The position numbers and the translations under genes are program-made. The notes below the pieces were generated by a model. The model did no database searches, was not told the origin of the DNA, and saw only the letters and a program-made list of their open reading frames with translations. Source: Cephalotus follicularis (taxonomy: Eukaryota > Streptophyta > Magnoliopsida > Oxalidales > Cephalotaceae). Taken from it: 64,000 nt of DNA. The stretch lies in the NCBI GenBank assembly GCA_001972305.1, contig BDDD01000572.1, forward strand, positions 399,912 through 463,911. Direction: 5' to 3'. Of the stretch, positions 11,595 through 54,737 are shown piece after piece. Each line of letters begins with the position of its first letter. The stretch's first letter is position 1.

Positions 11595-11707
11595 CAGTCG
11601 GTTGCCTTCAAGAATAGCCGACTGCCTTGGTTGAGTAGTCGACTGCTTTGCCTTGGCAGTCGACTGGATAGGTTGAGTAGTCGACTGCCATGAGGAGCAG
11701 TCGACTG
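11595..11707 (+). repeat. CAGTCGACTG palindrome cluster in G1
   Basis: About six copies of the 10-bp palindrome or one-to-three-base variants (for example CAGTCGGTTG, TAGTCGACTG) occur in 113 bases. The matching cluster in the G LTRs is at 25455-25568 and 32490-32583. Confidence 0.85.
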
Positions 11708-12757
11708 CTTCTGCCCAAAAAATGCAAGCAGTAGCAGTTTGCAATTTTCAATCTATAATACCAATCCAATCAAACATGCAATAATGCAGAAAAGTAAACA
11801 TACATGATATGCATGATCATATCTTCCATAACATATCGTTACCCCTACATCAATAGCTTATCCCAAGATCAATTGGAGTGATCTATCTCTTTGAGTTTCC
11901 AAAGCCATTCAACCAACAATCCTTCAATCCAGCAGGTTCAATCTATGTATGCATGTTTTTAGGGACACATGCATTAGCACCAGGAAGTTCAATAACCTTA
12001 AGACAACTATGATCTAACAGTAGTTACTCTCTAGATCATTAGCTTCATAACTATCCCCTTTTTACCACATATCTACGAACCTTGTCAATTATCTTTCTAT
12101 ACCAGGTTCTTTGATCTTGAACATGTGGACAGAAGGTATATGCATACTCAAGGAAATCAAGAAGCATATATTCAGTCATAAACAACAACTATAACCCTAT
12201 TCAAAGATTATAATCTTCATTTTACTTGAACCATATGCTACATTCCATATCAAGTCAATCTAGAAGTTTGCTAACCTTAACCATGTTAACAGAAGATCAA
12301 ACATCCTCCTAGATACCTTATCAACACATAACAGAGATTTCGGAGTTGGAACTTACCAGGAGAAGTCCAAGCTTCCAAGTTCCCCCCTTGAGCTCTAAAC
12401 CATCAACATGCAAGCTCCTTTAATTCTCCAGCAATTCTCCTCAATCTTTATTGTTTCTAACACTCACCCACAGCTCATGCACAGCTGATATAGGCTCAGG
12501 AATTCTTAAATTCGCCAGAGTCCTTTACTCTAACATTTTCTCCATTCTCTCTCTCACATGCCTTACTTCCTTCATTGTCATTTCTCACTTTTCTTTCTTT
12601 TGTTTCTGCAGGTACAGGTCTGAAATCTTACAGAGCACATGCAAGGGCTTTCCTTGCATGTCATGGCAGCTGGTGCATGCCCACGACACCTGTCCCCTTG
12701 CATGCCACACCCCTGTCCTGTCTCACACATGCACAGACACCTGATCTGCTGTAATTC

Positions 12758-12888
12758 CAGTCGACTGGATGCATTGGCCAGTCGACTGTCCACAACACGC
12801 ATCAGGCAGTTGACTGCTCCCCTGTGACAGTCGGCTGCCCCTTCATAAACCAGGCAGTCGACTTCCCCGCTGTGGTAGTAGGCTGTCA
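12758..12888 (+). repeat. Second CAGTCGACTG cluster in G1
   Basis: Five to six copies or variants lie near the element-sense start of the LTR. The counterparts are 26599-26677 and 33612-33692. Confidence 0.82.
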
Positions 12889-13064
12889 AGGGCTGTTTTT
12901 GGGTTTCTTAAGCTTGATTTTTACCAAATTGCATCTCCATTCATCCCAAGCAATTACCAATCACAAAATTATTATAATTGGACAAACACATTCAATTAAA
13001 ATGTATATTTATTTTAAATATGGAATCAATATACATTAATTTAATTTGCGGTTATTACACCTAT

Positions 13065-21460: not shown

Positions 21461-22370
21461 AAAGCGTCGACGTTCTCGACAAAAGCGTCGATGCTAAAGA
21501 CATGGCGTTGACGTCTAAAGACAAGGCGTCGACGGAAGCGCTGAACAAAGCGTCGACCAAAAACATTACAATACACAACGAAAGCGTCAACGGAAGGTAT
21601 AACAATATACAAAGAAAGCGTCGACGCTTACACAATAACACACAGACAAAGCATCAACTGTTAGGGTATAAGCATCGACAAGAATGAAAAACAATCGACG
21701 CTCAAGACATGCAAAACAATAAACAGTTGCAATATTGTTAATCATGCATCTATAAAACAGTTGTATGTAGGTTATAAAACACGACTCTGATGTTGAGAAT
21801 ACCAGATTAATATTTCAAATGTATAAACATATAGCTTTTCAGGTTACATGAGGCAATAACAATTATTAAAACATATTCTCAAAATTTAAAACAGTTTTCT
21901 AGTATTGCATTTCTAAGGCAGTTTTCATGAATAAATCAACAAGGTTTTGAACAAATAGCAGTAATAATGAAAACTAAAACCTATGTTCAGAATATACCTT
22001 CAGATGATGCCAAGAACGATGAAAAACAGTGCAAGAAAATGGCTACTTCAGTTTTGTAAAGAAAACGTGCAGGTGATGCAGTTTTTAAAACAATTGAAAA
22101 CGTGTAAGTTAAATGCCAAAAACGTGTTGTTTAAAAGACCTTCCTTTCATGCAAAACGCGTCCAATACAAAAGGTAAAGCGGATAAATGATTTTTGTAAA
22201 GAATCCTCCTTTCCAAAACTAAGCCACCGTCCAAAACAATTCAGGAAGATGACTAAAGCGTCGGCGGTTAATCGAAGGCGTCAGTGCTTAAGCCTTTATA
22301 ACTAAAGCGTCGACGTTAATGGTATAGGCGCCGGCGCTTTACCTATGTGTCAAAGCGTCGATGCTTTTGA
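21461..22370 (+). repeat. GCGTCGACGC palindrome arrays in LTR H
   Basis: Clusters at 21461-21700 and 22251-22370 hold repeated AAGCGTCGACGCTT-like sequences, with variants such as GCGTCGATGC, GCGTTGACG and GGCGCCGGCGC. The stretch between them is AT-rich LTR sequence. Confidence 0.85.
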
Positions 22371-22520: not shown

Positions 22521-23331
22521 TCTCCTTGGTGAACTATTTAATTCTACCTTATTACATAATGCACCAGGCATTCATGGCCTTCATTTGGTCTGACAAATTC
22601 CCTGACCTTCCTCTTTAACCTCCATATGATTCTCCTCCAATGCTTACAAACTTTTAATAAAATAACATTTAAATTTAAAGAAGAGAACACAAATATAGGG
22701 AGAAGGTAATCCTATCCTAGAGAGGAATTAAAAATAAGGAATTATGGTGCACGTAGGCAACCTTATGACAAACCAAATAAAATTTAATAAAGCAAAATAA
22801 ACATCCACAAAAGAAGCCAAAAACTAAGTCAAGTCTCATGGCCTACCATCATGCATAAGACATCCAAAAAATATATCGAATATAAATTTTGAATAAACAC
22901 ACAACAAATTTAATTTTCGATGCCTAATCGAATAAAATGTGGCATAATACAATATAACTCCCATTAGATTAATTAAAATCCAGTATCCACAGGGATTAAA
23001 TATCGATAGTTCCAAACTGATATTAGTCTTGTCGAAAGCGGGGATGCTTTATCATAAGCGTCGGCGGATACTAGCTACGCGTCAGTGCGTGCGTCGATGC
23101 TTTGCGTCACCTTCTGCGCTTTAAACAAAGCATCGTAGTTTAAACCGATGCTTAAGGTTTCCGCCAACGCTTAACTTCAAACCGTCAATGTTTAACGTCT
23201 AACTGTCGACGGTTTACTTGAAACTGCGATGGTTAGACAGAACAGAACGACACCATGTCAAATACAACAACAAAAACAACCCAAAACAACCATCAAAAAC
23301 AAGAAACAAAGTCTATCTGGGCTTGACTAGT
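22521..23331 (-). other. Leader of element C, PBS-proximal part, with GTCGAC-type array
   Basis: The first 100 bases match the D1 and D2 leaders in reverse complement (TTCATTTGGTCTGAC; compare 52090-52140). A cluster of GCGTCGATGC/AACCGTCGACGG-like motifs lies at 23035-23230, next to the PBS. No gene is seen. Confidence 0.75.
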
Positions 23332-23347: not shown

Positions 23348-24128
23348 TGAAAGAAAAGTAATAGGTTCATGGCCATTTTAGCTGTATAGGGTGTTCAAAT
23401 TTAATTTTCATCAAAGCAGGCTGCAAGCCTATGAACATCCTATAATCCAATTCCGTAAATGATCACAACCATCCTAGGATCGCTAACCAATTGTCGAATT
23501 AAACAAAACATCAACAAACATGCTTTACAAGTCATTGCTATGTCCAACAAAACAATAACTTGCATATAGAGAAGGTTAGAGATTATACCAAGCAACCAAA
23601 GTCCTTCCATCAAGAATCAGATCCAAAACTTCAAGCTGTAACTCAGGGACAAACAAGCCAGTCCAAGTCCTATATATCTAATCCTAGTGTAGGATGAATA
23701 TAGGAAGTATATAGCTTTTTGAAGTAACACACCACCTATAGAAATTATGGAGTAGTGTTAAGGATTGTGGTATTGGGCTTTTCTCTCTTCTCACTGTTTG
23801 TTCTCCAAGAACAAACCAGATGGCTCTATCTCTCTTTGGAAAAACATCCAGATTCTCCCACATTCTAATAGAACACATTCTCTCTTTCCTATTTTTATCA
23901 CCCAGTGTTTGATCCACAACACCATAAACCCAGCAATCAAGAAAACGTGTCAATGGATTTCATTCCCTAAATACAAATTCGGTTTCCCTTCCTTGGTGCC
24001 ATGACAACGTATGTTTCCAGTTCCAAAATGAATGACATATGGTGTATCCATATTCTATTACATGACTCACATAATGTCCAACAAAAAACGTGTTGTCTTT
24101 CAGCAACATCCAATAAGAGGAGAGAGAT
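23348..24128 (-). repeat. 5' LTR of element C, part 1
   Basis: It matches 9988-10265 joined to 13065-13520. It carries the empty site of solo LTR G1 near 23668. It is interrupted at GAGAT (24124-24128) by chromovirus G. Confidence 0.9.
24124..24128 (+). repeat. TSD GAGAT of chromovirus G
   Basis: GAGAT directly precedes TGTCACACC at 24129 and directly follows TTATTACA at 33842 (33843-33847). Joining the flanks restores the LTR sequence seen uninterrupted near 13520. Confidence 0.93.
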
Positions 24129-26827
24129 TGTCACACCCCGTCGTTCGGTTCCAATTAAGGACACAAGCATATATGGTGATATCAGAAAATAAAATAAAAT
24201 ATTCCAGCATTCCATTCAACAATTCAAATAATATAAGCGGAAGATTCAAGAAGCCGGAATATAAAATACAAGTCATCCGCACGCAGCCCATACTACGTGT
24301 AGGCACAATCCAACAACATCCTTATGCATAAGGAAAGTACAACGGTAACGGGGTATGAACCATTCATTACAAATACAGTACATCATAAAAATAACAACCT
24401 TAAGATAGAAAGAAACTCTCCAAAAGCTTCAGCAGCGCCCTCCAACATCTTCGCTTAATCTGAAATTGTAGGGGTTAGCCGTTGTCCTCACTTGGCTAAG
24501 TAGGAAGATAATGCATGCTAAGGAATATATGAATGCAACATGTATGACACATTTAAGTATTCCAATATATAAGCAAACATGCCAAGTGGCCATAGACAAT
24601 ACAATGCAAGAATATCGCACAAGGGTACAATCAATTCATACAGTGGTTTGGGTGTCACATGTCGCTAACTCCTAGCACCAACTGTGCACCACCTAACTAT
24701 CAACCTACACTCTGAAGATGATAGATAAGGTAACATTTACTACCGGCATTAGCGGGCAGTTTAACAATCAAGATCTGCGTTGCAGACAGTTTGGGTGGAT
24801 ACTCTAGCCAACTCCTGGCACATAGGACCACCTCCGTAGCCAATGATGTCTCTTATCACTCGACTAACAGGAATAACATAGACAATCAATTCAATCAATT
24901 CTGTTCAATAATAATATTACATATATTTAAAATATGTAATATAAAAGTTGTTTTCTTTAGAAACATTTAACAATTCATTGGTCGTACATCTCATAGGAGG
25001 AAAACGATATCAGTACAGTAGTGGTTCCCAGTTGGAGAACAAAACAGTAGGTACCTCTCATAGGAGGACAATCAGTAGTTCTTTTAACAATAAGCTTTCA
25101 TTTGAAAATGATAGTTGATATCATAAATGGTGCATATATCACTTAGTTGGTTCGATCATTGAAATATAAATGGTAGTGGTGTTAAATAACACCAAAACAG
25201 TATATACTAATATAACAGTAGCATATACAGCAACAATAGTAAAAGGCAGTAGCAATTCAAGGAATATAGTAAGGTAATTAGTATACCATAGTCATTCATG
25301 TGCCACTCTCACAAGGAGTGCATACATGTTTAGTTTCTGTAATGTAGTTGTATATAAGGCCAGGATTGATTGTTCTAATCATCCGTATAGAGGCCAAGTT
25401 AATTACATTTAAATTTAGGCCCAAACAGGACCTGTATAAGAATTTCAACCCAGGACAGTTGGTTGTTCTCAAGAACAGTCGGCTGTTTTGGTTGAGTAGT
25501 CGACTGTTTTCTCTTAACAGTCGACTGGATAGGTAGAGGAGTCGACTGTCATGAAGAACAGTCGACTGCTTTGCCCAGAAAATGCAGGCAGTAGCAGTTT
25601 ATGTGTTTCAAAGTCCAATTACTCACTTAAAAAACACATGCAATCAAACAGAAATTAAACATACATGATATGCATAATATATCTTCCAAGAACATGTCAT
25701 TACCCCTACCTCAATTGCTATCCCAAGATCAATTGGGTTTGATCTCTCTCTTTGAGTTTCCAAGGCTTTTTACCAACAAATCTTCCAATCTCAGCAGGAA
25801 TGATCTATACAATGCATGTTCGAAGGTTCAGTCATTTTGTTCAGTAGGTTTAACTAATTATCCAGCTACAATTGTTGTTCTAACAGTGGTTCATCAATAA
25901 TTCATTAAGTCTCAAAACTATCCTTTTACAACTTCTCTATGAACCTTGTGTCAAATCTATTTCAATCCCAGATTCATTGACCTTAAACGTGTGGACAGAA
26001 GATGGATATATATACGTAAGGGGAATCAGTATACATAATCTTGACAACTAACAACAACTATAATCCGAATTAGATTTATCAATAATTCCCTAAGCTTCAC
26101 ATCCATATTTCTTAACCCCTTTCATTACCATTTCTAACTTTTAGCATTATGGAAAGAAGACAGGTAAGCCATATGTGCTAAAGTTAATCTACAACTTCAA
26201 CCATAATCACAGATTGGAAGCTTACCAGGAATCAAGGCTTCAACTCCTTCTTTGAGCTCTAATCCTTGAACATGCAAGCTCCAATAATTCTCCAGCAAGC
26301 TCTCCTCTATCCTCAGTGTTTTCTAACACACAGTCAGCTCATGGACAGCTGATATAAAGCTCAGTTCGTGTCATTACTTTCCTTCCACATTTCCTCCTTC
26401 TCTCTCTCACATGTTCACTTCTTTCTCACTTTTCTCTTTTTCCACTTCTGTTTTGCAGGTTGCAGTTCTACAGAGAACATGCAAGCACTCCTTTTTTGCC
26501 TGCTCTGGAAACTGGTGACTTCGCAGAACACCTGTCCAGCATGCCTTGCCTCTGCCCTGTCTCAATTGCATGCGCAGACACCTGTTCTGTACCATTCTAG
26601 TCGACTGTCTTTAACAGGCAGTCGACTGTCACACCCCGCATCAGCCAGTCTACTATTCCCCTATGACAGTCGGCTGTCGATGGCTACTTTTGGTTATTTT
26701 AGGTTCATTTGCTTAATTTAAATTAACAACCACAATTCCGTATAATAATTGGACATTAAATTAAAGTAAGTGCTTATTTTATTCATCAAGAGTACAATAT
26801 ACACAGAATGAATTTGCGGTTATTACA
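24129..26827 (-). repeat. 3' LTR of chromovirus G
   Basis: The 2.7-kb LTR runs from TGTCACACCCCG to GCGGTTATTACA on the + strand. CAGTCGACTG clusters lie at 25455-25568 and 26599-26677. A 117-codon + strand frame (26368-26721) recurs in the other LTR (33383-33736) but is antisense to the element, low-complexity at its start and without a known domain. Confidence 0.93.
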
Positions 26828-26868: not shown

Positions 26869-28371
26869 TTACATTCTGAACAAGTGGGGAAATGTCTCCA
26901 TTATTTTGTCCTCACGATCCCACGTAGCTTCCCCTGCTCCGTGAAAACGCCACAGTACTTTTACCATAGGAATGGTCTTGTTCCTTAGTACCTTTTCCAT
27001 TCGATCCACTATCCTCGTCGGCCTATCCTCATAAGTCAATCTAGGGCTGATGAATCCAGGGTCGTAGCTCAATATGTGAGATGGGTCAGGCACGTATTTT
27101 CGTAGCATGGAAACATGAAATACATTATGCACATCTGACAAACTAGGCGGCAGGGCAATTTGATATGCTACCTCCCCCACTCTCTCCAGTATCTCGTAAG
27201 GTCCAATATACCTTGGGGCCAACTTCCCCTTGAGGCCAAAACGGTGTATCACTTTCGAAGGTGAGATCTTCAGGAAGACATGATCCCCCTTCTTGAATTC
27301 TAGCTTCCTTCTCTTGCTATCGGCATAACTCTTCTGCCGACTTTGTGCAGCTAGATGTCTCTTCTTGATTATTTCCACTTTATCAGTGGTCTCTTGTACC
27401 AAGTCCAGTCCCAGCACTTGTCTCTGACCTACCTCGTCCCAGCAAATAGGTGATCTGCACTTTCTCCCATATAAAGCTTCATTGGGAGCCATTCCAATGC
27501 TGGTGTGAAAACTGTTGTAGTAGGAGAACTCAATCAGAGCCAGAAGATCCTCCCAACTCCCAGCAAAATCAATCATGCAAGCCCGTAACATATCCTCCAG
27601 AGTCTGAATAGTACGCTCGGACTGCCCGTCAGTCTGTGGGTGGAATGCAGTGCTAAAGTTCAAGGTTATTCCCATCGCTATTTAGAACTTCTTCCAGAAC
27701 CTTGAAGTAAATCTAGCATCTCGGTCGCAGACAATACTGACCGGCACCCCATGCAATCTCACTATCTCCCGGATATACAATCGAGCAAGCTTCTCGATAG
27801 AATACGTCATGTTCATCGGAAGGAAGTGAGCAGACTTAGTAAGTCTGTCCACTACTACCCACACTGCCTCATGCTGATTTCGTGACCTCGGTAATCCTGA
27901 CACGAAGTCCATGGTCACATGCTCCCATTTCCATTCAACCACTGGTAACGATTATAGCAGTCCCTCCGGTTTCTGATGTTCAGCCTTCACACTCTGGCAA
28001 GTCAAACATCTCGCTACATATTCAGCAATCTCCCGTTTCATACCACTCCGCCAGTAGTTCTTTTTCAGGTCGTGCCACATCTTGGAACTTCCAGGGTGAA
28101 CACTGTATTTGGACTTGTGAGCTTGTTGCAGTAGCTCATTATTGATGCTCTCATCATTCGGAACACATATCCTCCCTCGGAACCTCAATATGCCATTAGT
28201 ATGAATGGAGAACTCAGAATCAGTGTCTAGGTTCTCACAAATACTCCACAATTTAGAATCACCATACTGAGCAGTCAGAATACGCTCCAGAAGTTTCGGT
28301 TGTGCTCTCAGACTTGCCACAATAACTCCACGAGAAACCATGAACGGAATCCATCTCTGAAATTCCTCCAA
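26869..28371 (-). pseudogene. Chromovirus G pol: integrase with C-terminal chromodomain-like segment
   Basis: Three minus-strand frames, 27952-28371, 27682-27942 and 26869-27675, join in order. They are separated by stops near 27949 and 27679, each of which could come from a single C-to-T change in a Gln codon. The first ends with CLTCQSVKAEHQKPEGLL, the second half of the HHCC zinc finger. The core has MDFVSGLP, then [15 protein letters not shown], then HPQTDGQSERTIQTLEDMLR, so the DDE positions appear present. The C-terminal part has the GPF/Y-like block (RYIGPYEIL), then VDRMEKVLRNKTIPMVKVLW and WDREDKI, a chromodomain-like segment typical of Del/Tekay. That domain is thought to guide insertion to heterochromatin. 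Confidence 0.9.
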
Positions 28372-28380
28372 TAGCTTCCA

Positions 28381-29365
28381 CTATGAAACCATTGCTCCAG
28401 CAATCATTGCCTTGCGACTCAGTGCATCAGCCACTACATTCGCCTTTCCAGGGTGGTATTGAATGTTGCAGTTGTAGTCATTAAAGAATTCCACCCATCG
28501 CCTCTGTATCATGTTGAGCTCCTTCTGGGAAAACAAATACTTCAAACTCTTATGGTCAGTAAAGATCTCAAACTGAGCACCATAGAGGTAGTGCCTCCAT
28601 TTCTGCAAAGCAAACACTATGGCTGCCAACTCAAGATCGTGTACGGGATAATTTTCCTCGTACGGCTTTAACTTCCTTGACGCGTATGCAATCACCCTGC
28701 CATGTTGCATAAGTACGCATCAAAATCCTTTCCCAGAAGCATCAGTGTAGACAGTGAAACCCTCATTTCCATCCGGTAATGCCAATACTGGAGCCGAAAT
28801 CAACTGACTCTTCAACTCTTGGAAACTTTCCTCATAGGAATCATCCCACACAAAACTTGATTCCTTCTGAGTCAACTGTGTCAGTGGTGTAGCAAGCTTC
28901 GAAAATCCCTTGATGAACCTTCGATAATAGCCAGCCAATCCCAAGAAACTACGGACCTCTGTAACATTCCTCGGTTGGGGCCAATCAACAATACTCTCTA
29001 TCTTCGAAGGATCCACTGACAATCCTTCACTTGACACAATGTGACCTAGGAAAGTCACATGATCCAGCCAAAATCCGCACTTGCTGAATTTGGCATATAA
29101 CTGTTCCTACCGTAGTGTCTGTAATACAATTCTCAAATGTTGCATGTGTTCCTCAATGCTCTTCGAATAAATCAGGATGTCATCTACGAATATAATGACA
29201 AACTGGTCAAGATAAGGTTGGAACACTTTGTTCATCAGACACATAAAGGCTGCAGGAGCATTGGTCAAACCAAACGGTAGTATAAAAAATTCGTAATGCC
29301 CATATCTAGTTCAAAATGCGGTTTTCTCCACATCACCCTCTCTGATCCTCCACTGATGATAACCT
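28381..29365 (-). pseudogene. Chromovirus G pol: reverse transcriptase end and RNase H
   Basis: This continues the RT of the next segment in element sense. The active site reads [12 protein letters not shown] (near 29170-29200) and is intact. Stops interrupt the stretch near 29310 and 29110. The frame 28720-29058 gives [16 protein letters not shown] and the connection domain to [11 protein letters not shown]. The frame 28381-28710 continues the RNase H with [32 protein letters not shown] and [11 protein letters not shown], so the four acidic residues are present. A stop (28717-28719) separates the two RNase H parts. Confidence 0.9.
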
Positions 29366-29369
29366 GTTC

Positions 29370-30257: not shown

Positions 30258-30359
30258 ATCATCTTTAGATAAGGTCTAGACCCTACCTTTCACAATCCCT
30301 TTCCCTGTGTCCTTTCACGGTTGAGCAGCCACAACACTGCCACTAGCATCCGCACTACC

Positions 30360-36143: not shown

Positions 36144-37356
36144 TGTTCGATGTCATTGAACCGATTCAAAATTTCCCTAATCTAACAATTAGCACAATGG
36201 AAAGTAGGGATCATTCCCATGAAGAGCTGCAATGACATGCAATATAAATGAACTTAGCGTGCACTTAAACGGAAATAACGGACACTATATTAATTTTACC
36301 TAAGCGAACAATGCAAATGGAGTAACTTTAAAAGAGAATCGATTTGAATTAGACTACGTTAATGAGAAATTGAAAAATTCAGATCAAATATTTAATGCAA
36401 TATGGCAATATAAATAGGAAATTGATATGAAAAAATAGTCCCTTCGATGTGAGAATCCCCCATGTATATATATATATATATGCTCAAGTTCATGGCACAA
36501 ATTTTGGTTTAATATATCATCATAGAAAAAAATGATTTAGCCTAGATACACCCTATCCTGTCAAACCTTGATACTCTCAAAAGGTTGATTGGTTAAAGGA
36601 TGTCTTTGGTGCAATCACATTGAAAGATTAAGGATCATTGCATGATGTAAATGAAATAGAGCTACCAGCACTAAAACATCAAGACATATTTTATATCATT
36701 AAAATTCCTTCTCATCAATGTTCTACATACATTAACAAGAGAAAAGTGTCTTAGACTCATGCCATTAAATTTGAAAACCAAACATTGAGATATGTAAAAT
36801 ACATGGTTTCATCTACATCCAGGGATTAAGATACTTAGCCGATCAATGATGGTGGCAGTGATCTTCTTCAGATAGTTTTTTCATCCAGCTAGCCGCCTCC
36901 TCGTTTCTTTTTCATCCTTTTCTTTTTATAATCCAATCCTCCCCAAAAACGGAAAAAAGAAAAAAAAAATCTAGCCTACTACAATCTAAATCAAAATTGT
37001 AAAAACTTTCCAATTCTTTTGCTTGATATGTCGTAAGCATCGACGCATTCACTTGGGCGTCAACTTTTTCACTTCGGCGTCGACGCTTATTTGTTTGAGT
37101 TGTTGAAAAAACTTGAGTGTGCATCGACGCTTTGAAGTGTTGAGAGTTGTGGCGTTGACGCTAAGATGGAACCCGTCAACGCTCTGGGATTTGAGCGTCG
37201 ACGCTTCTAGTGACCTTGGTGTCGATTCTAATGTGTTAGCGTCAACGCTTTGGCTGTGAAAATAGGTAAATTATGCAAAAATTCAACCATTTCTCAAGTT
37301 TTACTCCTTTTGCTTTCAATTTGTGCCAAATTGAATTATGTTTCTGCATTCTGATC
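36144..37356 (-). mobile_element. Athila-type LTR fragment F, reversed
   Basis: It begins TGTTCGATGTCATTG, the reverse complement of the end of the Athila LTR at 46573. It matches that LTR in reverse order (TCTAACAATTAGCACAATGG; CACCCTATCCTGTCAAACC; ...CTGCATTCTGATC). The last 100-300 bases of the LTR, its element-sense start, are missing where SIRE-like element S begins. No internal Athila sequence is attached. Confidence 0.85.
37036..37250 (+). repeat. GCGTCGACGC palindrome array in LTR F
   Basis: About nine copies or variants occur (GCATCGACGC, GGCGTCGACGCTT, GCGTCAACGC). The corresponding array in the full Athila LTR is at 45267-45690. Confidence 0.85.
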
Positions 37357-38130
37357 TGTTGGCCTTTGCCACCCCGATTAAATGTTTTCCACATGTTATT
37401 TTGATGATTAACAAACGTAATTTACTTGTATGCATAATTCCTTAAGTTATAAATGCAATTACTCACTTAATCTTATGTCCAAAGTTGTGCCAAGGATGTT
37501 TATGCAGGTACAGGCAATTCCAGCCGACTGGAGGGCAATTTCAGTCGACTGCCAAGGCTAAGAGTCGACTCCCAAATGTTGCAAGTTGACTGCATCTTCA
37601 ACCTAAAACCCAAAATCTGCAGAAACAACATACCAGCCAACTGTCAGGAAATTACAGTCGACTGCCAGGCAATTCCAGTCGGCTGCCAGGGCTTCCAGCT
37701 GACTGCCTTGAATTGTGCAAAATCTGGCAGTAGGTTTTGTAACTTCAATTTTAGCCTCACCAGCCGACTGAAGCAAGAGAACAGTCGACTGCCAAGGGGT
37801 CCAGCCGACTGCCTACAGCATCCAGCCGACTGCCTACAGCATCCAGCCGACTGCCTACTCCCAACGGCTATATTCAAATAAACGCGCCATCAATCCAGCC
37901 AGCTGCCATCCAAATCCAGCCGACTGGATTTGTATCAGACAGTTAAAAATAGATCCGTTGGAGGCTTAAATTTTTAAGGAAATTTGGGGCTCTTACATGG
38001 TTGATCAAGCATTCAAGTGCCATACAATCTCAAGTTATCTCAAGCTCAATACTAATCATTCACACAATCAAAAGAGAACAAATCCAAAGCAATCACCTAC
38101 ACATTACAAAGCCTTGTTCTTTACATTCAG
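37357..38130 (+). repeat. 5' LTR of element S, truncated at the deletion joint
   Basis: It starts TGTTGGCC and matches 40584-41061 over the first 480 bases. It carries about 15 CAGYCGACTG-type motifs at 37521-37927. The right edge is estimated from where RNase H similarity begins (CCAQVLWLKQQL), since no PBS follows. Confidence 0.8.
37521..37927 (+). repeat. CAGTCGACTG/CAGCCGACTG array in S 5' LTR
   Basis: About 15 copies occur, from CAGCCGACTGG at 37521 to 37927. The strict palindrome CAGTCGACTG alternates with the CAGCCGACTG form. A 20-bp sub-repeat (CAGCCGACTGCCTACAGCAT) occurs in tandem near 37800-37855. Confidence 0.9.
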
Positions 38131-38434
38131 TTGTTGTGCTCAAGTCTTGTGGCTTAAGCAACAACTTTGCGATTTCGGAATTAGCATTAGTAATGTATGT
38201 ATTAAATGTGATAACACTAGTGCTATCAATTTAAGTAAAAACCTCGTTCAACACTCTAAGTCTAAGCACATTGAGATTAGACATCACTTTCTTAGAGATC
38301 ATGTTGAAAAGGGTGACAGTTTTCTTGAATATATTGACACATTAAATCAAGTTGCAGATATTTTGACTAAGCCGCTGGACAACGAGCGTTTCTGCACCTT
38401 GCGGAGGGAGCTAGGTATGCAAAATCCTTCCTAA
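38131..38434 (+). pseudogene. Element S pol remnant: C-terminal RNase H
   Basis: In frame +, residues AQVLWLKQQLCDFGISI, then KCDNTSAINLSKN (catalytic Asp), then KHIEIRHHFLRDHVEKGD and VADILTKPLD give the end of a SIRE-type copia polyprotein, finishing GMQNPS at a stop. The frame is open upstream to 37997 only because it runs into LTR sequence. Everything N-terminal of this piece is deleted. It is cleanly preserved, which fits a recent deletion. Confidence 0.88.
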
Positions 38435-38662: not shown

Positions 38663-38743
38663 CAGCCGACTGGTTTGCTTACCAGTCGACTGCATTGCTA
38701 TCCAGTCGACTGGCATAAGTGGCCAGTCGACTGGAAAGTCGAC
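38663..38743 (+). promoter_or_regulatory. Internal CAGTCGACTG cluster upstream of the 378-codon ORF
   Basis: Five copies or variants (CAGCCGACTGG, CAGTCGACTGC, CAGTCGACTGG twice, AAGTCGACAG) lie in 81 bases between RNase H and the ORF, about 100 bases before its ATG. The motif matches the LTR array of the same element. A promoter or leader role for the ORF is inference. Confidence 0.6.
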
Positions 38744-38847
38744 AGACAGGGTTAAAACCCTCGATTTTTTCTGTCTTTCTCACATTCTTTCTATTTCAAA
38801 AACGCCCAAACACATTTCTCTCTCAAATCCGACCTGCAAACTGAGCT

Positions 38848-39984
38848 ATGGGACCAAAAAGAGGAAGAGCTTCCACTTCAAGGCTGCCAAGAGGATCTCA
38901 AATGGAGATTGACTACAACAATGAACTTTTTCTCTCCAAGGAGAAAGAGTTGAGGTATAATTCCTACTTTAGTTCAGTCAAGCTACATTGTGAGAAATGG
39001 TTAAGTAGGGAAGTGTTAGTGAGTAATCTTGCTGTGGTAATCACTTGGTTAGAAGCTATGGGTTGGTTAGAATACATTTGCTCATCACACATGATATACC
39101 CTAGACTAGTTAAGATGTTCTACACAAATTTGGAACCCTCAACTACTTGCATTGCCAAATCATATGTTTTAGGCACTCCTATCACTATCACTCCCGACCT
39201 AGTTGCTGAAATATTAGAAATTCCCAATGAGGGAATTACTAATTTTCATGACATTAGTAGAACGGAGGCCCTAGGAATTTGCCTAGAACAACCCAATGTC
39301 AATCCGCTTATGAATGTGACTAGTGGTCATTTGCCAATTACCTCTAGGATCATTCTACTCCTTGTTACAAACTCGTTTCTTCCTAAAGAAGGTTCACACA
39401 CACTACCCTCCGAGCGCGATCTTAAATTCGTCGCTTGTGTCAAAAATGGAACCCATATTAACCTACCATATTTCATTGTCAACCACATTTTATCTAGGCC
39501 AAATCACACACCTTATCCTATGCTTATTAGTAGGATCCTTTCTTTTGTCCTTACTTCACTAAACATAGACTTTCCAGATGATGAGCAAAATGTCAAACCT
39601 ACCCATAGGCAATTAGTGAACAAGGCAGGCCTTAGACATTGTGGGATTGTATTTGAGGATGGTGAGTGGGTCAAGATGAGAGGAAGAGCTAGAGAGCCGG
39701 TTAGAGAGCAAGAAAATGTGGGAGGTGGAGATGATGATGATGATGAGGAGGACGATCCTCAACAGTTTGAGGTGCGTCCAAATGTTGGTTCTAGCAGTGG
39801 TAGCAGCAGCAGGCCTACTCTTGATGCACTTATGGCCAGAATGGATATTGCCCAAGCGGATATGGAGTTTGTCAAAACTGAAATGCGGCAGTTTCGTGAG
39901 GGGCAAGAAAACATTCTCAAGGGACAAGCTGACATCCTCCAGTACCTTCAAAATGCTTTCCCACAGCACCCTCCTCCATCTTGA
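38848..39984 (+). CDS. 378-aa ORF in the extra-ORF position of a SIRE-type element
   Basis: An uninterrupted 378-codon frame lies between RNase H and the PPT, where SIRE elements carry an additional (often called env-like) ORF. The start MGPKRGRASTSRLPRGSQ is basic. Residues about 35-235 resemble the family annotated as putative plant transposon protein (Pfam Transposase_32, by recall): conserved-looking blocks are WLEAMGWLEYI, YPRLVKMFYTNL and ITPDLVAEILEIP. A basic patch (KMRGRAREPVREQE) and an acidic run (DDDDDEEDD) follow near residues 275-302. Residues about 325-372 are heptad-rich and likely a coiled coil. I see no signal peptide or membrane segment, so an envelope role is not supported. 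Function is unknown. The intact frame contrasts with every other gene in the window. Confidence 0.75.
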   Translation: MGPKRGRASTSRLPRGSQMEIDYNNELFLSKEKELRYNSYFSSVKLHCEKWLSREVLVSNLAVVITWLEAMGWLEYICSSHMIYPRLVKMFYTNLEPSTTCIAKSYVLGTPITITPDLVAEILEIPNEGITNFHDISRTEALGICLEQPNVNPLMNVTSGHLPITSRIILLLVTNSFLPKEGSHTLPSERDLKFVACVKNGTHINLPYFIVNHILSRPNHTPYPMLISRILSFVLTSLNIDFPDDEQNVKPTHRQLVNKAGLRHCGIVFEDGEWVKMRGRAREPVREQENVGGGDDDDDEEDDPQQFEVRPNVGSSSGSSSRPTLDALMARMDIAQADMEFVKTEMRQFREGQENILKGQADILQYLQNAFPQHPPPS

Positions 39985-40583: not shown

Positions 40584-41061
40584 TGTTGGCCTTTGCCACC
40601 CCGATTAAATGTTTTCCACATGTTATTTTGATGATTAACAAACGTAATTTACTTGTATGCATAATTCCTTCAGTTATAAATGCATTTACTCACTTAATCT
40701 TGTGTCCAAAGTTGTGCCAAGGATGTTTATGCAGGTACAGGCAATTCCAGCCGACTGGAGGGCAATTTTAGTCGACTGCCAAGGCTAAGAGTCGACTCCC
40801 AAATGTTGCAAGTCGACTGCATCTTCAACCTAAAACCCAAAATCTGCAGAAACAGCATACCAGCCCACTGCCAGGAAATTACAGTCGACTGCCAGGCAAT
40901 TCCAGTCGACTGCCAGGGCTTCCAGCCGACTGACTTGAATTGTGCAAAATCTGGCAGTAGGTTTTGTAACTTCAATTTTAGCCTCACCAGCCGACTGAAG
41001 CAAGAGAACAGTCGACTGCCAAGGGGTCCAGCCGACTGCCTACAGCATCCAGCCGACTGCC
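40584..41061 (+). repeat. 3' LTR of element S, truncated
   Basis: It matches 37357-37840 closely and then stops in the palindrome array (40748-41061) where a (TA)n tract begins. The remaining 300 or so bases of the LTR are not found to the right. Confidence 0.88.
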
Positions 41062-41082: not shown

Positions 41083-42224
41083 TTGAAAAAAAAGCACCCG
41101 GCACTTTATAGAAGCGCTAGGCGCACTAAGAAGAAACAAAGGGAGGGAGAGAGTGAGAGAGAGGGAGCACGGGAGAGAGAGAACCAGAAAGGGAGAGAGA
41201 TGCCATAGAAGATGATGGCCAAGGCGCCAGATCAGGAAAGTGAGCGGCACGACCTCACCCACGGTAAGTTCCTCTTTATCTTCTTTCTTTTCTCTTTCCT
41301 TCTTCCCCGGCGTCAAGCCTCTGTGCGCATCGACCGTGCATTTTCACCGCCGTTAGAATCGTGGATGGAGCAGGTATTCCTCTAAAAGGCTAGCTCTGCC
41401 CATTTTGACCACTGTTGAGGCGCCATTCGGTCAGAATCGGCCAGATTTGAGCTGCCGAGTTGACTCAGTGAACCCAACTCGCTGCCGCCTATGACTGAGC
41501 GTTTAGCGCTGAGTCACGGCGAGTCTCGATCGCCAATGGACTGATTGAAGGATTTTAAGGTTGGTTATGGCATTTTTGAGTGTTGACCAGAACTGTTGAA
41601 GTCCGGAAAGTTGACTTAGTGAGTCGAACTCACTGCCTGCCATGATAGCACGTTTCACGGTGAGTCACGGTGGTTCCTTGGCAGATATGAATTGATTGGC
41701 CAAATTGGAGCTTGTTTACGGCGTGGCTGGAATTTCGATGTGTTGATCAGAATTTGGTCGGAACTCCGGTGACGACATTGTGTAATTACTGCCTTTGTGT
41801 AGATTGTAAAGGAATGTGATGATTATTGCAGTGATACAAAGAGAGAGTATTTTGTTGACACAAGATAGAGTTGTGCTCGTAACGCCGGTATGGGACGGTA
41901 GTATACGAATGGTAGATCACTAGAGTAGGTTATGCTAATTACATTGCATTCGTGCATTCTAAATGGTTATATGGATTGATATGTGTATGAATTGTAATTA
42001 TATGAATGCATGATTGTACATATATATATATACATACGAGTATACACAGGGATGTGGATATTGCATATGGTATAAGGTTTAGATGTTGAATTGAGGGGAG
42101 ATGTGTTCTTGCCTTCACTCAATTCACAGGCTATGGGATGAATCTTAAAGGGCTTTGAACTGTTTTAGATATTGTTTTCACCGAATTGCGAACTGTTTTG
42201 CAAAATGATATTTCTTCCAAAACC

Positions 42225-42365
42225 GTCGATGCTTTCTTCTTAACTATAGACACTTTTATGTGTTAAACCAAACAGTCGACGCCTTATGCTTTCAAACAAA
42301 CCATTGAGGCTTTATACTTATGGTTTTTAAAACTATCGACGCCTAGGGCTAAACATCGACGCTTA
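42225..42365 (+). repeat. GTCGACGC-type motif cluster in block J
   Basis: The cluster includes ACCGTCGATGC, CAGTCGACGCC, ACTATCGACGCC and ACATCGACGCTTAG. The motif is the same as in LTR H and the Athila LTRs. Confidence 0.75.
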
Positions 42366-45062: not shown

Positions 45063-46573
45063 TGTTGAGCATAAAAATGTATTCTTTTTAATGAGTTAAA
45101 TATTGTATTTGTTATGCTTAGAACATATTACTTTGGTTGTGTTTGATTGACTTTCAGGTTAGAGGCCAAAAAGATCAAAATGCAGAAACACGAGTCAAAT
45201 TGGCACAATTTGAGAGCAAGGAGATCAAAGATTGAAGAGTTGACAAAATTCTATCAAAAATAGAGCAAAGCGTTGATGCTTAGACTTTAAGCATCGACTC
45301 CTAATTCTTAAGCCCTGACAGTTTCAAAGAAAGCATCGACGCTTTGCACTTCGGTTGGAAAAAGTTTACAGTCTTATGATTTTCATCAACACCAATCCTT
45401 TTGGCGTCAACGTGCTGGGAATTTAATGTTTAGGCGTCAATGTGCTGGGAATTTAATGTTTAGGCGTCAATGCCAGGATCAAGACGTCAACTACAAAAGT
45501 ACACAAATTGGTCAGCAGCTTAAACGTTAGCGTGCAATGAGGAAGATGTCAACGCGAAGTTAAGCGTCGATGACTTGCTTGTAAGCGTCGATGCTTAACA
45601 CCTAAGTCAGCTAAAGAACACAACTTATACGTCGACGCTTAGTGCATTCAACATATCAAAGCGTCAATGCAAAACGCCAAGCCGTCAATGCCAAAGACTC
45701 AAGCTTCAACTCTTTCGACGTATAAGGCTACAGAATTGGAAAGTTTATAGAGTTTGATTCAGATTGTAATAGGTTAGATTTTTTTTTGTAGGGAATTGGA
45801 GTATAAAAAGAAAACAACGAAAAAGAGAAAGGTGTGAAGTCAAGTGAAGGAAGGCGGCTGCTGGATGAAAAATTATTTGAAGAAGATTGCTACCACCATC
45901 ATCATGATTGGCTGAGTATCTTAATCCCTGGATGTTGATGAACCCATGTATTTTATATATCTCAAGGTCTGGTTTTCAGGTTTAATGGCATGTGTGTAAG
46001 ACACTCTTCTCTTGTTAATGTATGTGGAACAATAATGAGAAGGAATTTTAATGATATAAAATCTGTTTTGATGTTTTAGTGCTTGTAACTCTAATTCATT
46101 TACATCATGCAATGATTCTTAATTTTTCTATGTGCTTGCACCAAAGACATTCTTTAACCAATCAACCTTTCAAGAGTATCAAGGTTTTACAGGATAGGGT
46201 GTATCTAGGCTAAATCATTTTTTTTTTGTGTTGTTACATTAAACCAGAATTTATGCCATGAACTTGAGAATATATATATACATGGGGGATTCTAACATCT
46301 AAGGGGTTGTTTTCTCATATAAATTTCCTATTTATTTTGTTATATTGCATTAGATATTTAATCTGAATTGTTCAGTTTCTCATTAAAGTTGTTTAATTCA
46401 AACCAATTCTCTTTTAAAGTTAATTCATTTAGTGTTCGTTATTTCTGTTTAAGTGCATACTAAGTTTATTTATATTGCATATCATTACAGCTCTTTGTAG
46501 GAACGATCCTGACTTTCCATTGTGCTAATTGTTAGATTAGGGTAATTTTGAAGCGGTTCAACAACATCGAACA
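45063..46573 (+). repeat. 5' LTR of Athila element E
   Basis: It starts TGTTGAGCATAAAAATG, the counterpart of TGTTTAGCATAAAAATG in LTR K read in reverse. It ends ATCGAACA, six bases before the PBS. Length is about 1.5 kb. It carries a long GCGTCGACGC-type array (45267-45690). LTR F is a reversed partial copy of the same family. Confidence 0.85.
45267..45690 (+). repeat. GCGTCGACGC palindrome array in Athila LTR
   Basis: About 18 copies or variants (GCGTTGATGC, GCATCGACGC, GCGTCAATGC, ACGTCGACGC) are spread over 420 bases. One stretch near 45405-45470 contains a 31-bp tandem duplication with GTGCTGGGAATTTAATG. Confidence 0.88.
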
Positions 46574-46579: not shown

Positions 46580-46597
46580 TGGCGCCATTGCCGGGGA
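46580..46597 (+). other. Primer binding site of Athila element E
   Basis: TGGCGCCATTGCCGGGGA matches the Athila-type PBS (usually attributed to tRNA-Asp) with one difference, A for G. It lies six bases after the LTR end. Confidence 0.9.
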
Positions 46598-51546: not shown

Positions 51547-51557
51547 TGGTATCAGAG
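51547..51557 (+). other. Primer binding site of copia element D2
   Basis: TGGTATCAGAG follows the LTR end after one or two bases and matches initiator-Met tRNA. Confidence 0.92.
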
Positions 51558-52999
51558 CGATCCATTTTAATTTCAATTGGACTTTAACTTATGTTTTGGT
51601 GGCTATTTTGGAATAATTAAAGTACCTGAAATTATGGTTTAATTCCCTTCCCATGGTTGTTTTATAAAATAATTTTTTTTTCCGGGAAACTAGGTTTTAA
51701 ATAATCTAGTGGGAGGTGTATTGGAGTGTCGGCGGACTTCTGAAATTATTTCGATTGGCCATCGGAAATTGAAATTACGTGTGTTTATTTAAAGTCTATA
51801 GTGGATGTAGATTTTAAATGTCTGATGCATGATGGCTGGTTATGGGACTGGACCTAGCTTTTGATTTCTTTTGTGGATGGTTTAATTTGCTTTGTTAACT
51901 TGTGCTTTTATTTGGTCTGTAATTTGATTGCCTGCGAGCACCATTGATACCTTATTTGTATTATTCTCTCTCTCCCTCCAATTTTGTATTATGTTCTTTA
52001 TTTTTAAATGTATTTTGAGAAATTTATTTTTGTAAACAAAGAACAGAAGAATAACAAAGGAGCTTGTAGAGGAAGATGAAGGAAGTTAAAAGACCAAGTG
52101 AAGGCCATGTATGCGTGGTGCATTTTGTAATAAAGTAGTTTTAAATAGTTCACCTAGGAGATCAAGTGGTCACATTGGCATGTGTGATCACTAATAGATT
52201 TAGTCCCTGGCCATGCCACATTTATTTCTATGTGGGAAATAGGTTGCATGAGATGGATGTTTTCTTTTTGCAAACAATCCAAACACGTCAAGAAGGCTAA
52301 GCCGCTCAATTGGATTGGAAGATAAAATCAATCTGAATAACGGCATGGTAATATATAAAATTTGATGAGACCAAATTCCTCCAACATGTGAAATAATAAG
52401 TCCATAAGCGGTGGGACATAAGGTTGTCCCGTCGTTGGCCTTCCACAGTTTTTGTTGAATGGTGTGGACATATTTGGGATAGCACTGCCAAAGCAGAGGT
52501 CCCCTGTATGACCATTTCTATTCAATTTCAGTGTGAGATGCACTGGAAGGAAATAATCATGTTTTGGCACTCTGACAGGCCAAAGCGTGTGGGTGTCAAA
52601 ACGGGTCCATTTCTTTGAGGATTGTGGGTTTGGACTTATACCGGGGTCATACTATTGGCACACCAAAGCTGTGGATTGTATGGGCTGGGAGGCCGCAAGT
52701 TGTATCGGATCTTACATTTTGGGTAAGACACCCTAATGTAAATATGGTGCTTTAAGACTAACTATTCGCTATTGTGGTTTGTCATGCTAAAGCTGAGATC
52801 ATGATAGGGCGGGATAGATTCCGATCCCCACTAGGAGGCAAGAGGCTTCTCAAGTTCCACATTGGAGGTGTGGAATACGATTACAATAGTGGGAGAAGCC
52901 ATAATTACAAAAGACCAAGGATTATGGTAATAACATAAATGGAATGATCTGTTAATATTCTCTTTCTTTTTCCTCATATAGGTTGCAAGTTTTCACATA
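51558..52999 (+). other. Leader of copia element D2
   Basis: About 1.4 kb of non-coding leader aligns with the D1 leader (9637-9960 plus 35170-35930) and, in reverse complement, with the C leader. This three-way match gives the uninterrupted reference for the C insertion in D1 and the H insertion in C. Confidence 0.82.
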
Positions 53000-53594
53000 C
53001 TTGATTATATACTCAAATTGGCAAACAGCACAAACCAACTTCAAACACATTTAAACACTCCAAAACTTGAACATCCGTATTTTACTGAATGGAAACGCGT
53101 TTAGCGTAACATTCTCATGAGCATGACAGTCGCTCATGTCATGACTGAGATAACCCTGAGCTAGTGAACGATGTATCCGACCATCACACGGCCAGTTGGG
53201 CTTAATGGTGGAACGAAGATTATCGAGCTTGTACCCTATCAATTGTTGTCATGTTGCCACAATTTCGCATGATCGGGTTATGGACTCACAAACCTTGTGT
53301 GTCATGCTTACACAACTCGAGGAGTTGTATGGCACCCAGTCGAGGACTATAAAGGTGGATTGTGACCAAGAGAGGTCATGATCGTCTGTGATGTCTCGAT
53401 TTCCTACTTGAATAATCTGAAGGGGAGATAGATCAAGTGAATCTAAGTTCCAATGGTGAAACCCCAAGGAAGAGGCTGTTAGTGCAAAGGGATTCCATTC
53501 TAGAAAAATGATCAAAAGTTTTATATGGAGTTTGCCTACTTCCATTGTGGGAAGCTAAGGCAATTGGAAGTGTTCACTGTTAAAAAGAATATGA
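53000..53594 (+). pseudogene. Copia element D2 gag (decayed)
   Basis: Pieces recognisable in different frames are EWKR...SMTVAHVMTEI (like KLSHVMTEN in D1), then MLTQLEELYGTQSRTIKVD, which matches YGTQSRTDEVD in C. Near 53520 is a knuckle-like stretch (YFHCGKLRQLEVFTVKKN). Stops and shifts are frequent. The frame is cut at 53594 by LTR K. Confidence 0.75.
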
Positions 53595-54737
53595 TGTTTT
53601 AAAATTTATAGCCGCAAGTGCACGGATCATGCAGTAACGGGTCGAACACAAGGAAACGTAAACTAGTTGTAATTTATCCAACCTAGGCGAAGTATACCAA
53701 TTTTAAGATAAACTATCAAAAACTACTCCTAATTATGCAATGTAAAATAAATAAACAAAACAAGAAATTAAAACTTCGATAATTAAAAGCGTTGAATTCA
53801 AAATACTAAGAAATAAAGCATGCAATGAATAAAAGTAAAGAGAATATATAATAAAGAAACGGTTTTAGGGTATAGAAACTCACCGTAGATTGTATTGAAC
53901 AATTCCATTGAGTTGAACGATCATACCATGATAAACAACGAGAGCTAGGTCAATAACAATCTAGGCTTGTTCTTCCCTAAAACCTTGAAAAGTTTAGCTA
54001 CTAAACATTGTGAAATAAAACTAAATTGATAGAGAGAAAATTAGGGTTCTACAGCCTCTACACTACTCTACATACCTATTCTGCCGAAATAATATTGTTT
54101 ATATACTACAAAGTTGATCAAAAACGGAATAAAAGTAATCATAGTTACAAAATATGGCAAAAATCTGAACTTTCTATTTCTGCTGCAGAGAAAGACGACG
54201 ACTTCTTTTGAAAGGCGTCGACTACTTTGTGTAAAAATCGCGACTTGCTGAGATGCGAGTGAAAAGCGTCGACTTCTTCTATGAATGACGTCGACTTCTT
54301 TTGGTCTAAAGTTACAGGTCAATTTTGTTCAAAGACATCGATGTGTTGTGTGAAATACATCGATCTTCATGAAAGGCGTCGACGTGTTTTTAAAAAGACG
54401 TCGACTTCTTTTTCATAGCTCTTTGAAGATTGTTGCATTTTCCAGAAAAGACGTCGACTTCTTCCTAAAGACGTCGATGCGATTGTTAAAAACCCAGAAA
54501 AGACATCGACTTGAATGAAAGTCATCGACGCTTTTGCCCTGTTTTCTGCAGAATTTAGCAATTCTTCAATCTCTACTCTTTTAAACTCCAATTTGAACAA
54601 CTTTGGGTAGTATTCTTGCACTTTGGTCATTTAACACTCGTACCTGAAAATCCATATAACACAACCAAAGTAGTCTATTCCAAGCATAAAAATATCACAA
54701 ATAACACATTAAAAACAACACATTTTTATGCTAAACA
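53595..54737 (-). mobile_element. Athila/Tat-like LTR K inside D2
   Basis: On the minus strand it starts TGTTTAGCATAAAAATGTG and ends AAATTTTAAAACA, 1.1 kb. The start matches the Athila E LTR, and the GCCGCAAGTGCACGGATC block near its end is common in Athila-like LTRs. It carries a GCGTCGACTTCTT-type array (54192-54535). No clear TSD or internal sequence is present, so it is a solo LTR or an LTR fragment of a related subfamily. Confidence 0.75.
54192..54535 (+). repeat. GCGTCGACTTC array in LTR K
   Basis: About 14 copies of GACGTCGACTTCTT, GGCGTCGACTACTT or ACATCGAT-like variants occur in 340 bases. The array is the counterpart of those in LTRs E and F but half of the palindrome is replaced by CTTCTT. 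Confidence 0.85.

What the first reader, a model, noticed from the sequence alone, without database searches (positions are those of the whole stretch)
11595..54535. Arrays of GTCGAC-core palindromes recur in unrelated retrotransposon families of both superfamilies
Two 10-bp palindromes sharing the core GTCGAC occur as dispersed arrays. CAGTCGACTG is in chromovirus G LTRs (11595-11707, 12758-12888, 25455-25568, 26599-26677, 32490-32583, 33612-33692) and in copia S (37521-37927, 38663-38743, 40748-41061). GCGTCGACGC is in LTR H (21461-21700, 22251-22370), the copia C leader (23035-23230), Athila LTRs F, E and K (37036-37250, 45267-45690, 54192-54535) and block J (42225-42365). Spacing is irregular and the families are otherwise unrelated, which argues against simple tandem duplication or shared descent. 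Convergent gain of a binding site for a host factor, or exchange between LTRs, would fit.
Basis: partly seen in the sequence, partly recalled or inferred. Interest (0 to 1): 0.8.

Follow-up and report, generated by a model that had tools for sequence, protein, structure and literature searches.

The report
Helix-phased palindrome arrays shared by retrotransposons
Several unrelated families of plant jumping genes carry rows of the same short DNA word, often kept about two turns of the double helix apart, which suggests that they share one docking system for a DNA-binding protein.

Summary
The palindromes are real and strongly non-random. CAGTCGACTG occurs 19 times in the window against 0.01 expected and 197,377 times in the 1.58-Gb host genome against 939 for the reversed word. 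In a 200-kb sample the two named words rank first among all 1024 10-bp palindromes. The second word shows this pitch only between neighbours. In family G, sites are conserved between diverged LTR copies while spacers drift, and decay neutrally after insertion. Carriers include Ty3/gypsy and Ty1/copia elements. One, S, shows Sirevirus hallmarks, with arrays where published Sirevirus repeated motifs sit. So the kind is known (Bousios 2010). New here are its spread into gypsy families, three flavours on one GTCGAC core, helical phasing and co-orientation. I read the arrays as cooperative binding sites for a host transcription factor driving LTR promoters. The factor is unidentified; CBF/DREB proteins are only a lead. 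The off-phase genome count and the genome count of the second word did not complete.

The parts
11595..11707 (-). Gypsy G1 LTR fragment, array 2 (downstream of a TATA-like box read by eye): 6 sites, gaps 20,21,21,21,20
   Evidence: alignment
12758..12864 (-). Gypsy G1 LTR fragment, array 1 (upstream of the TATA-like box): 5 sites, gaps 21,28,21,27
21464..21704 (.). B-flavour array in element H: 7 sites within 2 mismatches (21464-21627), 9 core words to 21704; gaps 21,20,21,24,34,34,54,20
22258..22364 (.). Second B-flavour array of H: 4 sites, gaps 49,21,27
23035..23230 (.). C-copia leader with scattered B-like words; weak, not called as an array
24127..26827 (-). 3' LTR of gypsy element G, read from similarity to its 5' LTR (31530-33842) and the PBS at 31515
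   Evidence: 24128-24667 94% and 25048-26827 96% identical to 31530-33842; 24668-25047 has no counterpart there
25476..25568 (-). G 3' LTR array 2: 5 sites, gaps 21,21,21,20
26598..26676 (-). G 3' LTR array 1: 4 sites, gaps 21,27,21
26872..31076 (-). G coding fragments: gag (PF03732), protease (PF08284), integrase C-terminal SH3_Tf2-1 (PF24626): Ty3/gypsy
31515..31526 (-). G primer binding site TGGTATCAGAGC, next to the 5' LTR 31530-33842
32492..32583 (-). G 5' LTR array 2: 5 sites, gaps 20,21,21,20
33613..33691 (-). G 5' LTR array 1: 4 sites, gaps 21,27,21
37037..37248 (-). B-flavour array in LTR F: 7 sites, gaps 40,44,31,21,22,44
37521..37926 (+). S (Sirevirus) 5' LTR array: 14 sites in runs of 20-21 bp
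37970..38431 (+). End of the S pol frame (RNase H end read by eye, no Pfam hit); the relative L017 has RVT_2 upstream
38663..38745 (+). S array between pol and the extra ORF (the 'before ENV' position of Sirevirus repeated motifs): 5 sites, gaps 20,20,21,12
38845..39981 (+). S extra ORF (env position), Pfam PF20167
40261..40581 (+). Four copies of the Sirevirus polypurine tract AGGGGGAG (40261, 40292, 40332, 40574); the last abuts the 3' LTR
40748..41059 (+). S 3' LTR array: 12 sites
42223..42362 (.). Block J, weak B-flavour array: 3 sites (gaps 50, 80)
45220..45711 (+). B-flavour array zone in LTR E (9 sites, 45270-45670), between segments alignable to F on both sides
46580..46590 (+). TGGCGCC-type primer binding site after LTR E (one mismatch to the word searched; recalled as tRNA-Asp type, Athila/Tat-like)
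54194..54534 (-). Third-flavour array in LTR K (about AAGACGTCGACTTCTT), inside a copia element; strand inferred from the match to E

Best explanation
The arrays are cis-regulatory: rows of binding sites for a sequence-specific nuclear protein, most likely a host transcription factor, that drives transcription from the LTR promoter and, in S, probably from an internal promoter before the extra ORF. Sites two helical turns apart and in the same orientation put neighbouring protein molecules on one face of the DNA, so that they bind cooperatively. Arrays arise by local tandem duplication of a roughly 21-bp unit. Spacer letters then drift while site and pitch are kept by selection in the replicating lineage, and everything decays neutrally once a copy is inserted. 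Unrelated gypsy and copia families have come to use the same GTCGAC core, with three flavours of flanking letters. Shown: enrichment, pitch of the first word, conservation in G, orientation bias, distribution. Inferred: protein binding, cooperativity, transcriptional role, host origin of the factor, independent recruitment. The factor is unknown; the variants seen (GTCGAC, GCCGAC, ATCGAC) fall within RYCGAC, a catalogued CBF (CRT/DRE) site, which is a lead only; ATCGAC can also arise by CpG decay.
For: Enrichment. Pitch: A pair distances fit a period of 10.35 bp, R 0.658 over 327 pairs (jitter maximum 0.185), and 10.40 bp, R 0.603, for the 232 distances above 30 bp (jitter maximum 0.177); 36 of 53 adjacent gaps of 11-60 bp in the sample and 29 of 35 in the window are 20-21; 34 of 49 on contig C1; 34,367 exact genome pairs at 20-21 bp, 125 for the reversed control. 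Conservation in G at about 30% divergence: sites 91/100, spacers 65/92, rest 854/1217; CpG kept 8/9 in sites and 2/8 elsewhere; G1 to G2 9 of 11 sites kept against 2.9 expected, reached in 3 of 20,000 runs; G1 to G3 9 of 10 against 2.4, reached in none. Between the two LTRs of one element sites are not favoured (84/90 against 68/70 spacers). Orientation: variant CCGA 41 and TCGG 3 in the sense strand of G+S, 5 of 24 arrays left unassigned; 43 of 45 concordant within 11 arrays. Position: S arrays in the LTR and between pol and the extra ORF, as in published Sireviruses. Arrays are CpG-rich: CpG o/e 1.19 against 0.59 for the window. GTCGAC and RYCGAC are listed as CBF sites.
Against: No binding, expression or methylation data exist here. 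In A, 9 of 123 gaps are 27-28 bp, off the helical face, and in the range 18.5-23 bp the best single period is 21.6 bp (R 0.466), not 20.7. The B/K flavours phase weakly (R 0.237 at 20.5 bp; best fit over 8-30 bp is 25.8 bp), and beyond 30 bp not above the jitter null (0.151 against 0.164). Array 2 of G lies downstream of the TATA-like box, unusual for an enhancer. AP2 factors bind as monomers (recalled) and would not need the CAG...CTG symmetry. Aligning arrays favours site-on-site matches: with site letters masked, 7 of 10 G1 sites fell in exact register with G2 and site identity was 0.73 against 0.72 in spacers. The CpG contrast seen in G is unclear in S (for example 7/10 in sites against 3/6 elsewhere). 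L013/L023 show the opposite variant direction if the neighbouring genes own the arrays. Variant counts include both LTRs of one element and duplicated units.
Confidence: 0.65

Rival explanations
1. Neutral tandem duplication: the arrays are minisatellite-like by-products of slippage with a 20-21-bp unit and have no function.
For: Spacers within an array are more alike than chance (0.43 against 0.29); exact tandem copies at 37800-37858; L022 repeats a two-spacer unit.
Against: In G, sites are conserved while spacers and the rest of the LTR diverge, with CpGs kept in sites and mostly lost elsewhere; the same word occurs in G and S with unrelated spacers (0.293, shuffled level); two flavours are the top palindromes of the sample.
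Confidence: 0.1
2. Selection acts on RNA: array transcripts fold into hairpins, as proposed for small-RNA-targeted palindromes of maize Sireviruses, or the sites have an RNA packaging role.
For: The S array folds better than shuffles as sense RNA (z -3.4) and as antisense RNA (z -5.2); maize Sirevirus palindromes are small-RNA hotspots (passages). The sense change to CCGA is a tolerated wobble in antisense RNA.
Against: Palindrome arrays fold by construction. The common sense-strand change in G and S (U to C) breaks a sense RNA pair, and L013/L023 show the opposite change. A pitch of whole helical turns has no obvious reason in RNA.
Confidence: 0.12
3. An element-encoded protein, acting in trans like VANC of Arabidopsis VANDAL elements, binds the arrays and removes silencing for several families.
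For: VANC sites also form fast-changing tandem arrays; flavours change within one LTR lineage (E/F against K); S has an extra ORF of unknown role.
Against: No candidate DNA-binding protein was found in the frames scanned; no extra gene shared by G and S was seen there; VANC21 motifs are non-palindromic and described in one orientation.
Confidence: 0.12
4. All arrays descend from one segment exchanged between LTR families by recombination or template switching.
For: Same word and same pitch in G, S and L013/L023; spacers of G and L013/L023 are slightly more alike than shuffled (0.332 against 0.288).
Against: Spacers of G and S, and of S and L013/L023, are at the shuffled level; in three masked cross-family pairs 0 of 34 sites fell in register. 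An old transfer whose spacers have drifted is not excluded.
Confidence: 0.2

Closest known systems
Sirevirus repeated motif (RM) boxes (Bousios et al. 2010, PMC2829016; section 9 and passages read)
   Same: Multi-copy palindromes in the LTR and before the extra ORF, forming CpG islands. The Vitis RM is CGGTCGACCG with the same GTCGAC core. S has the AGGGGGAG tracts and the pol/array/ORF order described there.
   Different: Here the word is also in Ty3/gypsy LTRs. The paper calls the RM Sirevirus-specific and absent from classic copia, with a CGG-CCG signature in all but one. In the passages I read it reports no regular spacing or orientation.
Maize Sirevirus LTR palindromes and small RNAs (Bousios 2016, not held; passages of PMC5311732 and PMC10760457 that cite it)
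   Same: Fast-evolving palindrome clusters in the cis-region. The copia motif was also the most abundant one in Helitron structured regions.
   Different: Different word (CACCGGACNNNGTCCGGTG); discussed as RNA structure and small-RNA targets.
VANDAL/VANC target motifs (PMC5735166, abstract and passages)
   Different: DNA transposons with their own binding protein; same-orientation YAGTATTAY motif; 'palindrom' does not occur in the main text.
CRT/DRE sites of CBF/DREB factors (GTCGAC preferred by HvCBF2, and RYCGAC; table rows in a passage of PMC4222965; search listing)
   Same: Core word and several of the variants.
   Different: Known as single sites in gene promoters; no 10-bp dyad or 21-bp pitch known to me (recalled).

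Membership tests
Sirevirus (element S) | Multiple AGGGGGAG polypurine tracts before the 3' LTR, the last abutting it | tested here: met
   Exact copies at 40261, 40292, 40332, 40574, LTR start following; one exact copy in L017 at 4323
Sirevirus (element S) | Ty1/copia pol with an extra ORF after it | tested here: met
   L017: RVT_2 in a 433-aa frame, then a 444-aa ORF with PF20167; the window copy lacks most of pol
Sirevirus (element S) | RT/RNase H phylogeny within Sirevirus | not tested
   No tree was built
Sirevirus RM boxes | At least eight palindrome copies, with copies before the extra ORF | tested here: met
   S: 14 sites in the 5' LTR, 5 before the extra ORF, 12 in the 3' LTR
Sirevirus RM boxes | Copies confined to the upper half of the LTR, upstream of the TATA box | tested here: inconclusive
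   The S LTR 3' end was not delimited; in L017 a TATA-like word by eye follows the array
Sirevirus RM boxes | CGG-CCG core signature | tested here: not met
   CAGTCGACTG lacks it (profile); in the paper Tnd-1 also lacks it
Sirevirus RM boxes | Confined to Sireviruses | tested here: not met
   Arrays in the LTRs of G, with gypsy gag, protease and integrase, and near gypsy pol in L014 and L023
Ty3/gypsy (element G) | Gypsy-type gag, protease and integrase; iMet-type PBS | tested here: met
   PF03732, PF08284, PF24626; PBS at 31515
Chromovirus (element G) | Chromodomain after integrase | tested here: inconclusive
   No chromodomain hit in 26872-27681 at E 0.01 or better; SH3_Tf2-1 present
CRT/DRE site (CBF/DREB) | Bound by a CBF/DREB protein | not testable with these tools
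   Word match only

The most novel reading that the evidence does not exclude
In this plant many LTR retrotransposon lineages, gypsy and copia alike, have independently converged on one host DNA-binding protein that assembles head to tail along helix-phased GTCGAC sites, so that the roughly two hundred thousand CAGTCGACTG sites of the genome form one shared enhancer code for its retrotransposons; related flavours mark co-evolving paralogues of that protein.
Probability: 0.25. Interest if true: 0.87.

Novelty: new variant of a known kind. Interest (0 to 1): 0.65.

Why it matters
Unrelated plant retrotransposons are usually thought to evolve their promoters separately. A shared, phased site used by gypsy and copia families of one host would show which host factor they exploit and give a direct handle on how they escape silencing. 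The site, pitch and orientation rules are precise enough to test in one gel-shift or reporter experiment. They also extend the 2010 Sirevirus repeated motifs, whose function that paper left open, to other superfamilies.

Tried and rejected
Considered and set aside: chance; neutral minisatellite; one recent transferred segment; symmetric homodimer (strand bias of the variant). An exact 21-nt small-RNA register is not excluded by the pitch alone: 10.35 bp fits best, but 10.5 nearly as well (R 0.632).

Led nowhere: viral contigs hold no phased pair (with genomes near the window possibly left out there); a companion word TCTGCAGA near arrays (8 near against 0.7 expected) is confounded by related copies; of 29 papers holding the motif word, the 20 listed have no title on retrotransposons. 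Searches for GTCGAC + palindromic + LTR retrotransposon (0 papers), Sirevirus + palindrome + LTR (13 papers, 3 opened in part), palindromic repeats in LTRs (15 of 39 listed), shared motif in gypsy and copia (1 paper, on Drosophila), Cephalotus + retrotransposon (8 of 9 listed) and LTR retrotransposon + helical turn (9 papers) showed no such report in titles or abstract starts. Doubly changed form CAGCCGGCTG: I first read as showing none; the recount gives 1 beside 92, 29 and 20 of the other three T/C forms, about 4 expected, too few to judge; the genome count did not complete. An earlier count said 83 spacings; the right total is 82.
Full report
What was checked. The window holds 19 exact CAGTCGACTG (0.01 expected by dinucleotide shuffles), 3 exact GCGTCGACGC and 50 GTCGAC (5.2 expected). 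Among palindromes in the window, GTCGAC, AGTCGACT and CAGTCGACTG rank first by z at 6, 8 and 10 bp. The host genome (G000, 1,577,397,061 bases) holds 197,377 exact CAGTCGACTG against 939 of the reversed control word. In 20 stretches of 10 kb (L009-L028, contigs C10 to C200 in steps of ten, 12,954 N), placed before looking, the two most over-represented of all 1024 10-bp palindromes are GCGTCGACGC (11 against 0.01) and CAGTCGACTG (35 against 0.07). The second word was never counted genome-wide (tool busy).

Host. The 120 listed matches (of 231) to the extra ORF of the S relative L017 are all named Cephalotus follicularis, identity up to 93%; the window's own S ORF matches those 120 at up to 79%. 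The host is probably this pitcher plant (Oxalidales), but the assembly itself is unnamed.

Spacing. For CAGTCGACTG (up to 1 mismatch) 36 of 53 adjacent gaps of 11-60 bp in the sample and 29 of 35 in the window are 20-21 bp, with pair-distance peaks in the sample at 20-21, 41-42, 61-63, 82-83, 102-104 and 123-125. Among the first 100 exact sites on contig C1, 34 of 49 gaps of 11-60 bp are 20-21. Core words with A-type flanks fit 10.35 bp with R 0.658 over 327 pairs (jitter null up to 0.185), and 10.40 bp with R 0.603 over the 232 distances above 30 bp (null up to 0.177); in the range 18.5-23 bp the best single period is 21.6 bp, R 0.466. So the DNA turn is the clearer unit, and two turns the commonest step. 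Genome-wide 34,367 exact pairs lie at 20-21 bp (125 for the reversed control pattern). The off-phase control did not complete. Core words with other flanks (B and K flavours) share the first peak, 40 of 152 adjacent gaps of 12-130 bp at 20-21 bp, but phase weakly: R 0.237 at 20.5 bp, with 25.8 bp the best fit over 8-30 bp, and nothing above the null beyond 30 bp. Against the simple picture, 9 of 123 A gaps are 27-28 bp.

Sites and flavours. The A profile is ten letters, CAG[T/C]CG[A/G]CTG, with little information outside. The B profile is about sixteen, WARGCGTCGACGCYTW. A third flavour, about AAGACGTCGACTTCTT, fills LTR K, and close forms fill stretches of L015 and the linker of L017. In 264 kb I called 44 arrays of three or more sites (24 A, 20 B; 15 in the window, 29 in the sample), falling into 9 flank clusters; single linkage merges some nested elements. 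A looser core-word rule finds 41 clusters against 5 for reversed words. Arrays have CpG o/e 1.19 against 0.59 for the window.

Carriers. G has gypsy gag, protease and integrase fragments and a PBS at 31515. S shows four AGGGGGAG tracts, the last at the 3' LTR. Its relative L017 has RVT_2, then an array, then a 444-aa ORF (PF20167), then one tract and the LTR array; that ORF frame, read stop to stop, begins just before the array. Gypsy genes also lie near A arrays in L013, L014 and L023, and copia genes near B arrays in L012, L015, L020 and L025; nearness is not proof of ownership. Two LTR pairs of the window (16-2572 with 4734-7355, and 49008-51543 with 57645-60187) carry no array, so it is not universal.

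Selection. Between G1 and G2 (about 30% diverged) sites are 91/100 identical, spacers 65/92, rest 854/1217; CpG is kept in 8/9 site cases and 2/8 elsewhere. Of 11 G1 sites 9 are sites in G2 (2.9 expected neutrally, 3 of 20,000 runs reach 9), and of 10 comparable with G3 9 are (2.4 expected, none of 20,000). Between the two LTRs of one G element sites fare no better than spacers (84/90 against 68/70), nor in S (115/120 against 88/90). Diverged S copies and L013/L023 show the same trend (sites 0.82-0.93, spacers 0.33-0.67), but their alignments can be drawn site onto site, and in S the CpG contrast is unclear. With site letters masked, 7 of 10 G1 sites still fall exactly on G2 sites (0 of 34 in three cross-family controls), while site identity drops to 0.73, level with spacers (0.72); I put this down to small shifts of the masked blocks, which I did not measure. 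Spacer identity is 0.43 within arrays, 0.299 between arrays and 0.288 shuffled; by family G-S 0.293, S-L013/L023 0.289, G-L013/L023 0.332.

Orientation. The variant with one T changed to C is CCGA in the sense strand 41 times and TCGG 3 times in the 19 of 24 A arrays that could be assigned to G or S; the 5 unassigned arrays hold 5 CCGA, 8 TCGG and 1 CCGG in plus-strand reading. Within the 11 arrays with two or more such variants 43 of 45 agree. L013 and L023 match each other in opposite orientation; relative to the gag-protease frames beside them their variant runs opposite to G and S, ownership assumed. Shared descent by duplication, and counting both LTRs of an element, inflate these numbers. 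A symmetric dimer would not predict the bias; head-to-tail binding would.

Array turnover. LTRs E and F align on both sides of the array (84% over 57 bp, 81% over 915 columns), yet the arrays between, 492 and 272 bp, do not; E aligns with K over 218 columns (73%), and K carries another flavour.

Mechanism. These facts fit rows of protein-binding sites under selection for site, pitch and direction, acting on the DNA. The LTR position, and in S the position before the extra ORF, point to transcription. Bousios et al. 2010 (section 9 and passages) describe Sirevirus repeated motifs at these two positions, with a Vitis motif CGGTCGACCG, and suggest stress factors without test. The CBF/DREB lead rests on word match only. 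RNA folding neither supports nor excludes an RNA role.

Verdict. A known kind, Sirevirus repeated motifs, in a new and wider form. What I did not find reported, in the listings and the passages read, is the spread into gypsy elements, the helical pitch and the co-orientation.

Noticed in passing
window 824-1343 and 5536-6057: 27-bp minisatellites inside a duplicated 2.6-kb segment (16-2572 and 4734-7355, 87% identical) with a near-PBS at 2578: probably LTRs of an element without GTCGAC arrays.
   Followed up: partly
L017:3690-3990: A third-flavour array lies in the linker between the extra ORF and the 3' LTR of an S-type Sirevirus; none was called in the same stretch of the window S copy.
   Followed up: partly
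window 37616, 38652, 40843, 54545; L017:2184, 3993, 4477: The palindrome TCTGCAGA recurs near array edges (8 near arrays against 0.7 expected); related copies confound the count, and some stretches without arrays hold it too.
   Followed up: partly
window 38845-39981; L017:2161-3492: Pfam PF20167, named a putative plant transposon protein, sits in the env position of a Sirevirus; the 120 listed of 231 relatives are all from Cephalotus.
   Followed up: partly
L026:1050-1363: A repeat with alternating GCCGACCGCTT and GTCGGCAAATC words, different from the arrays described.
   Followed up: no
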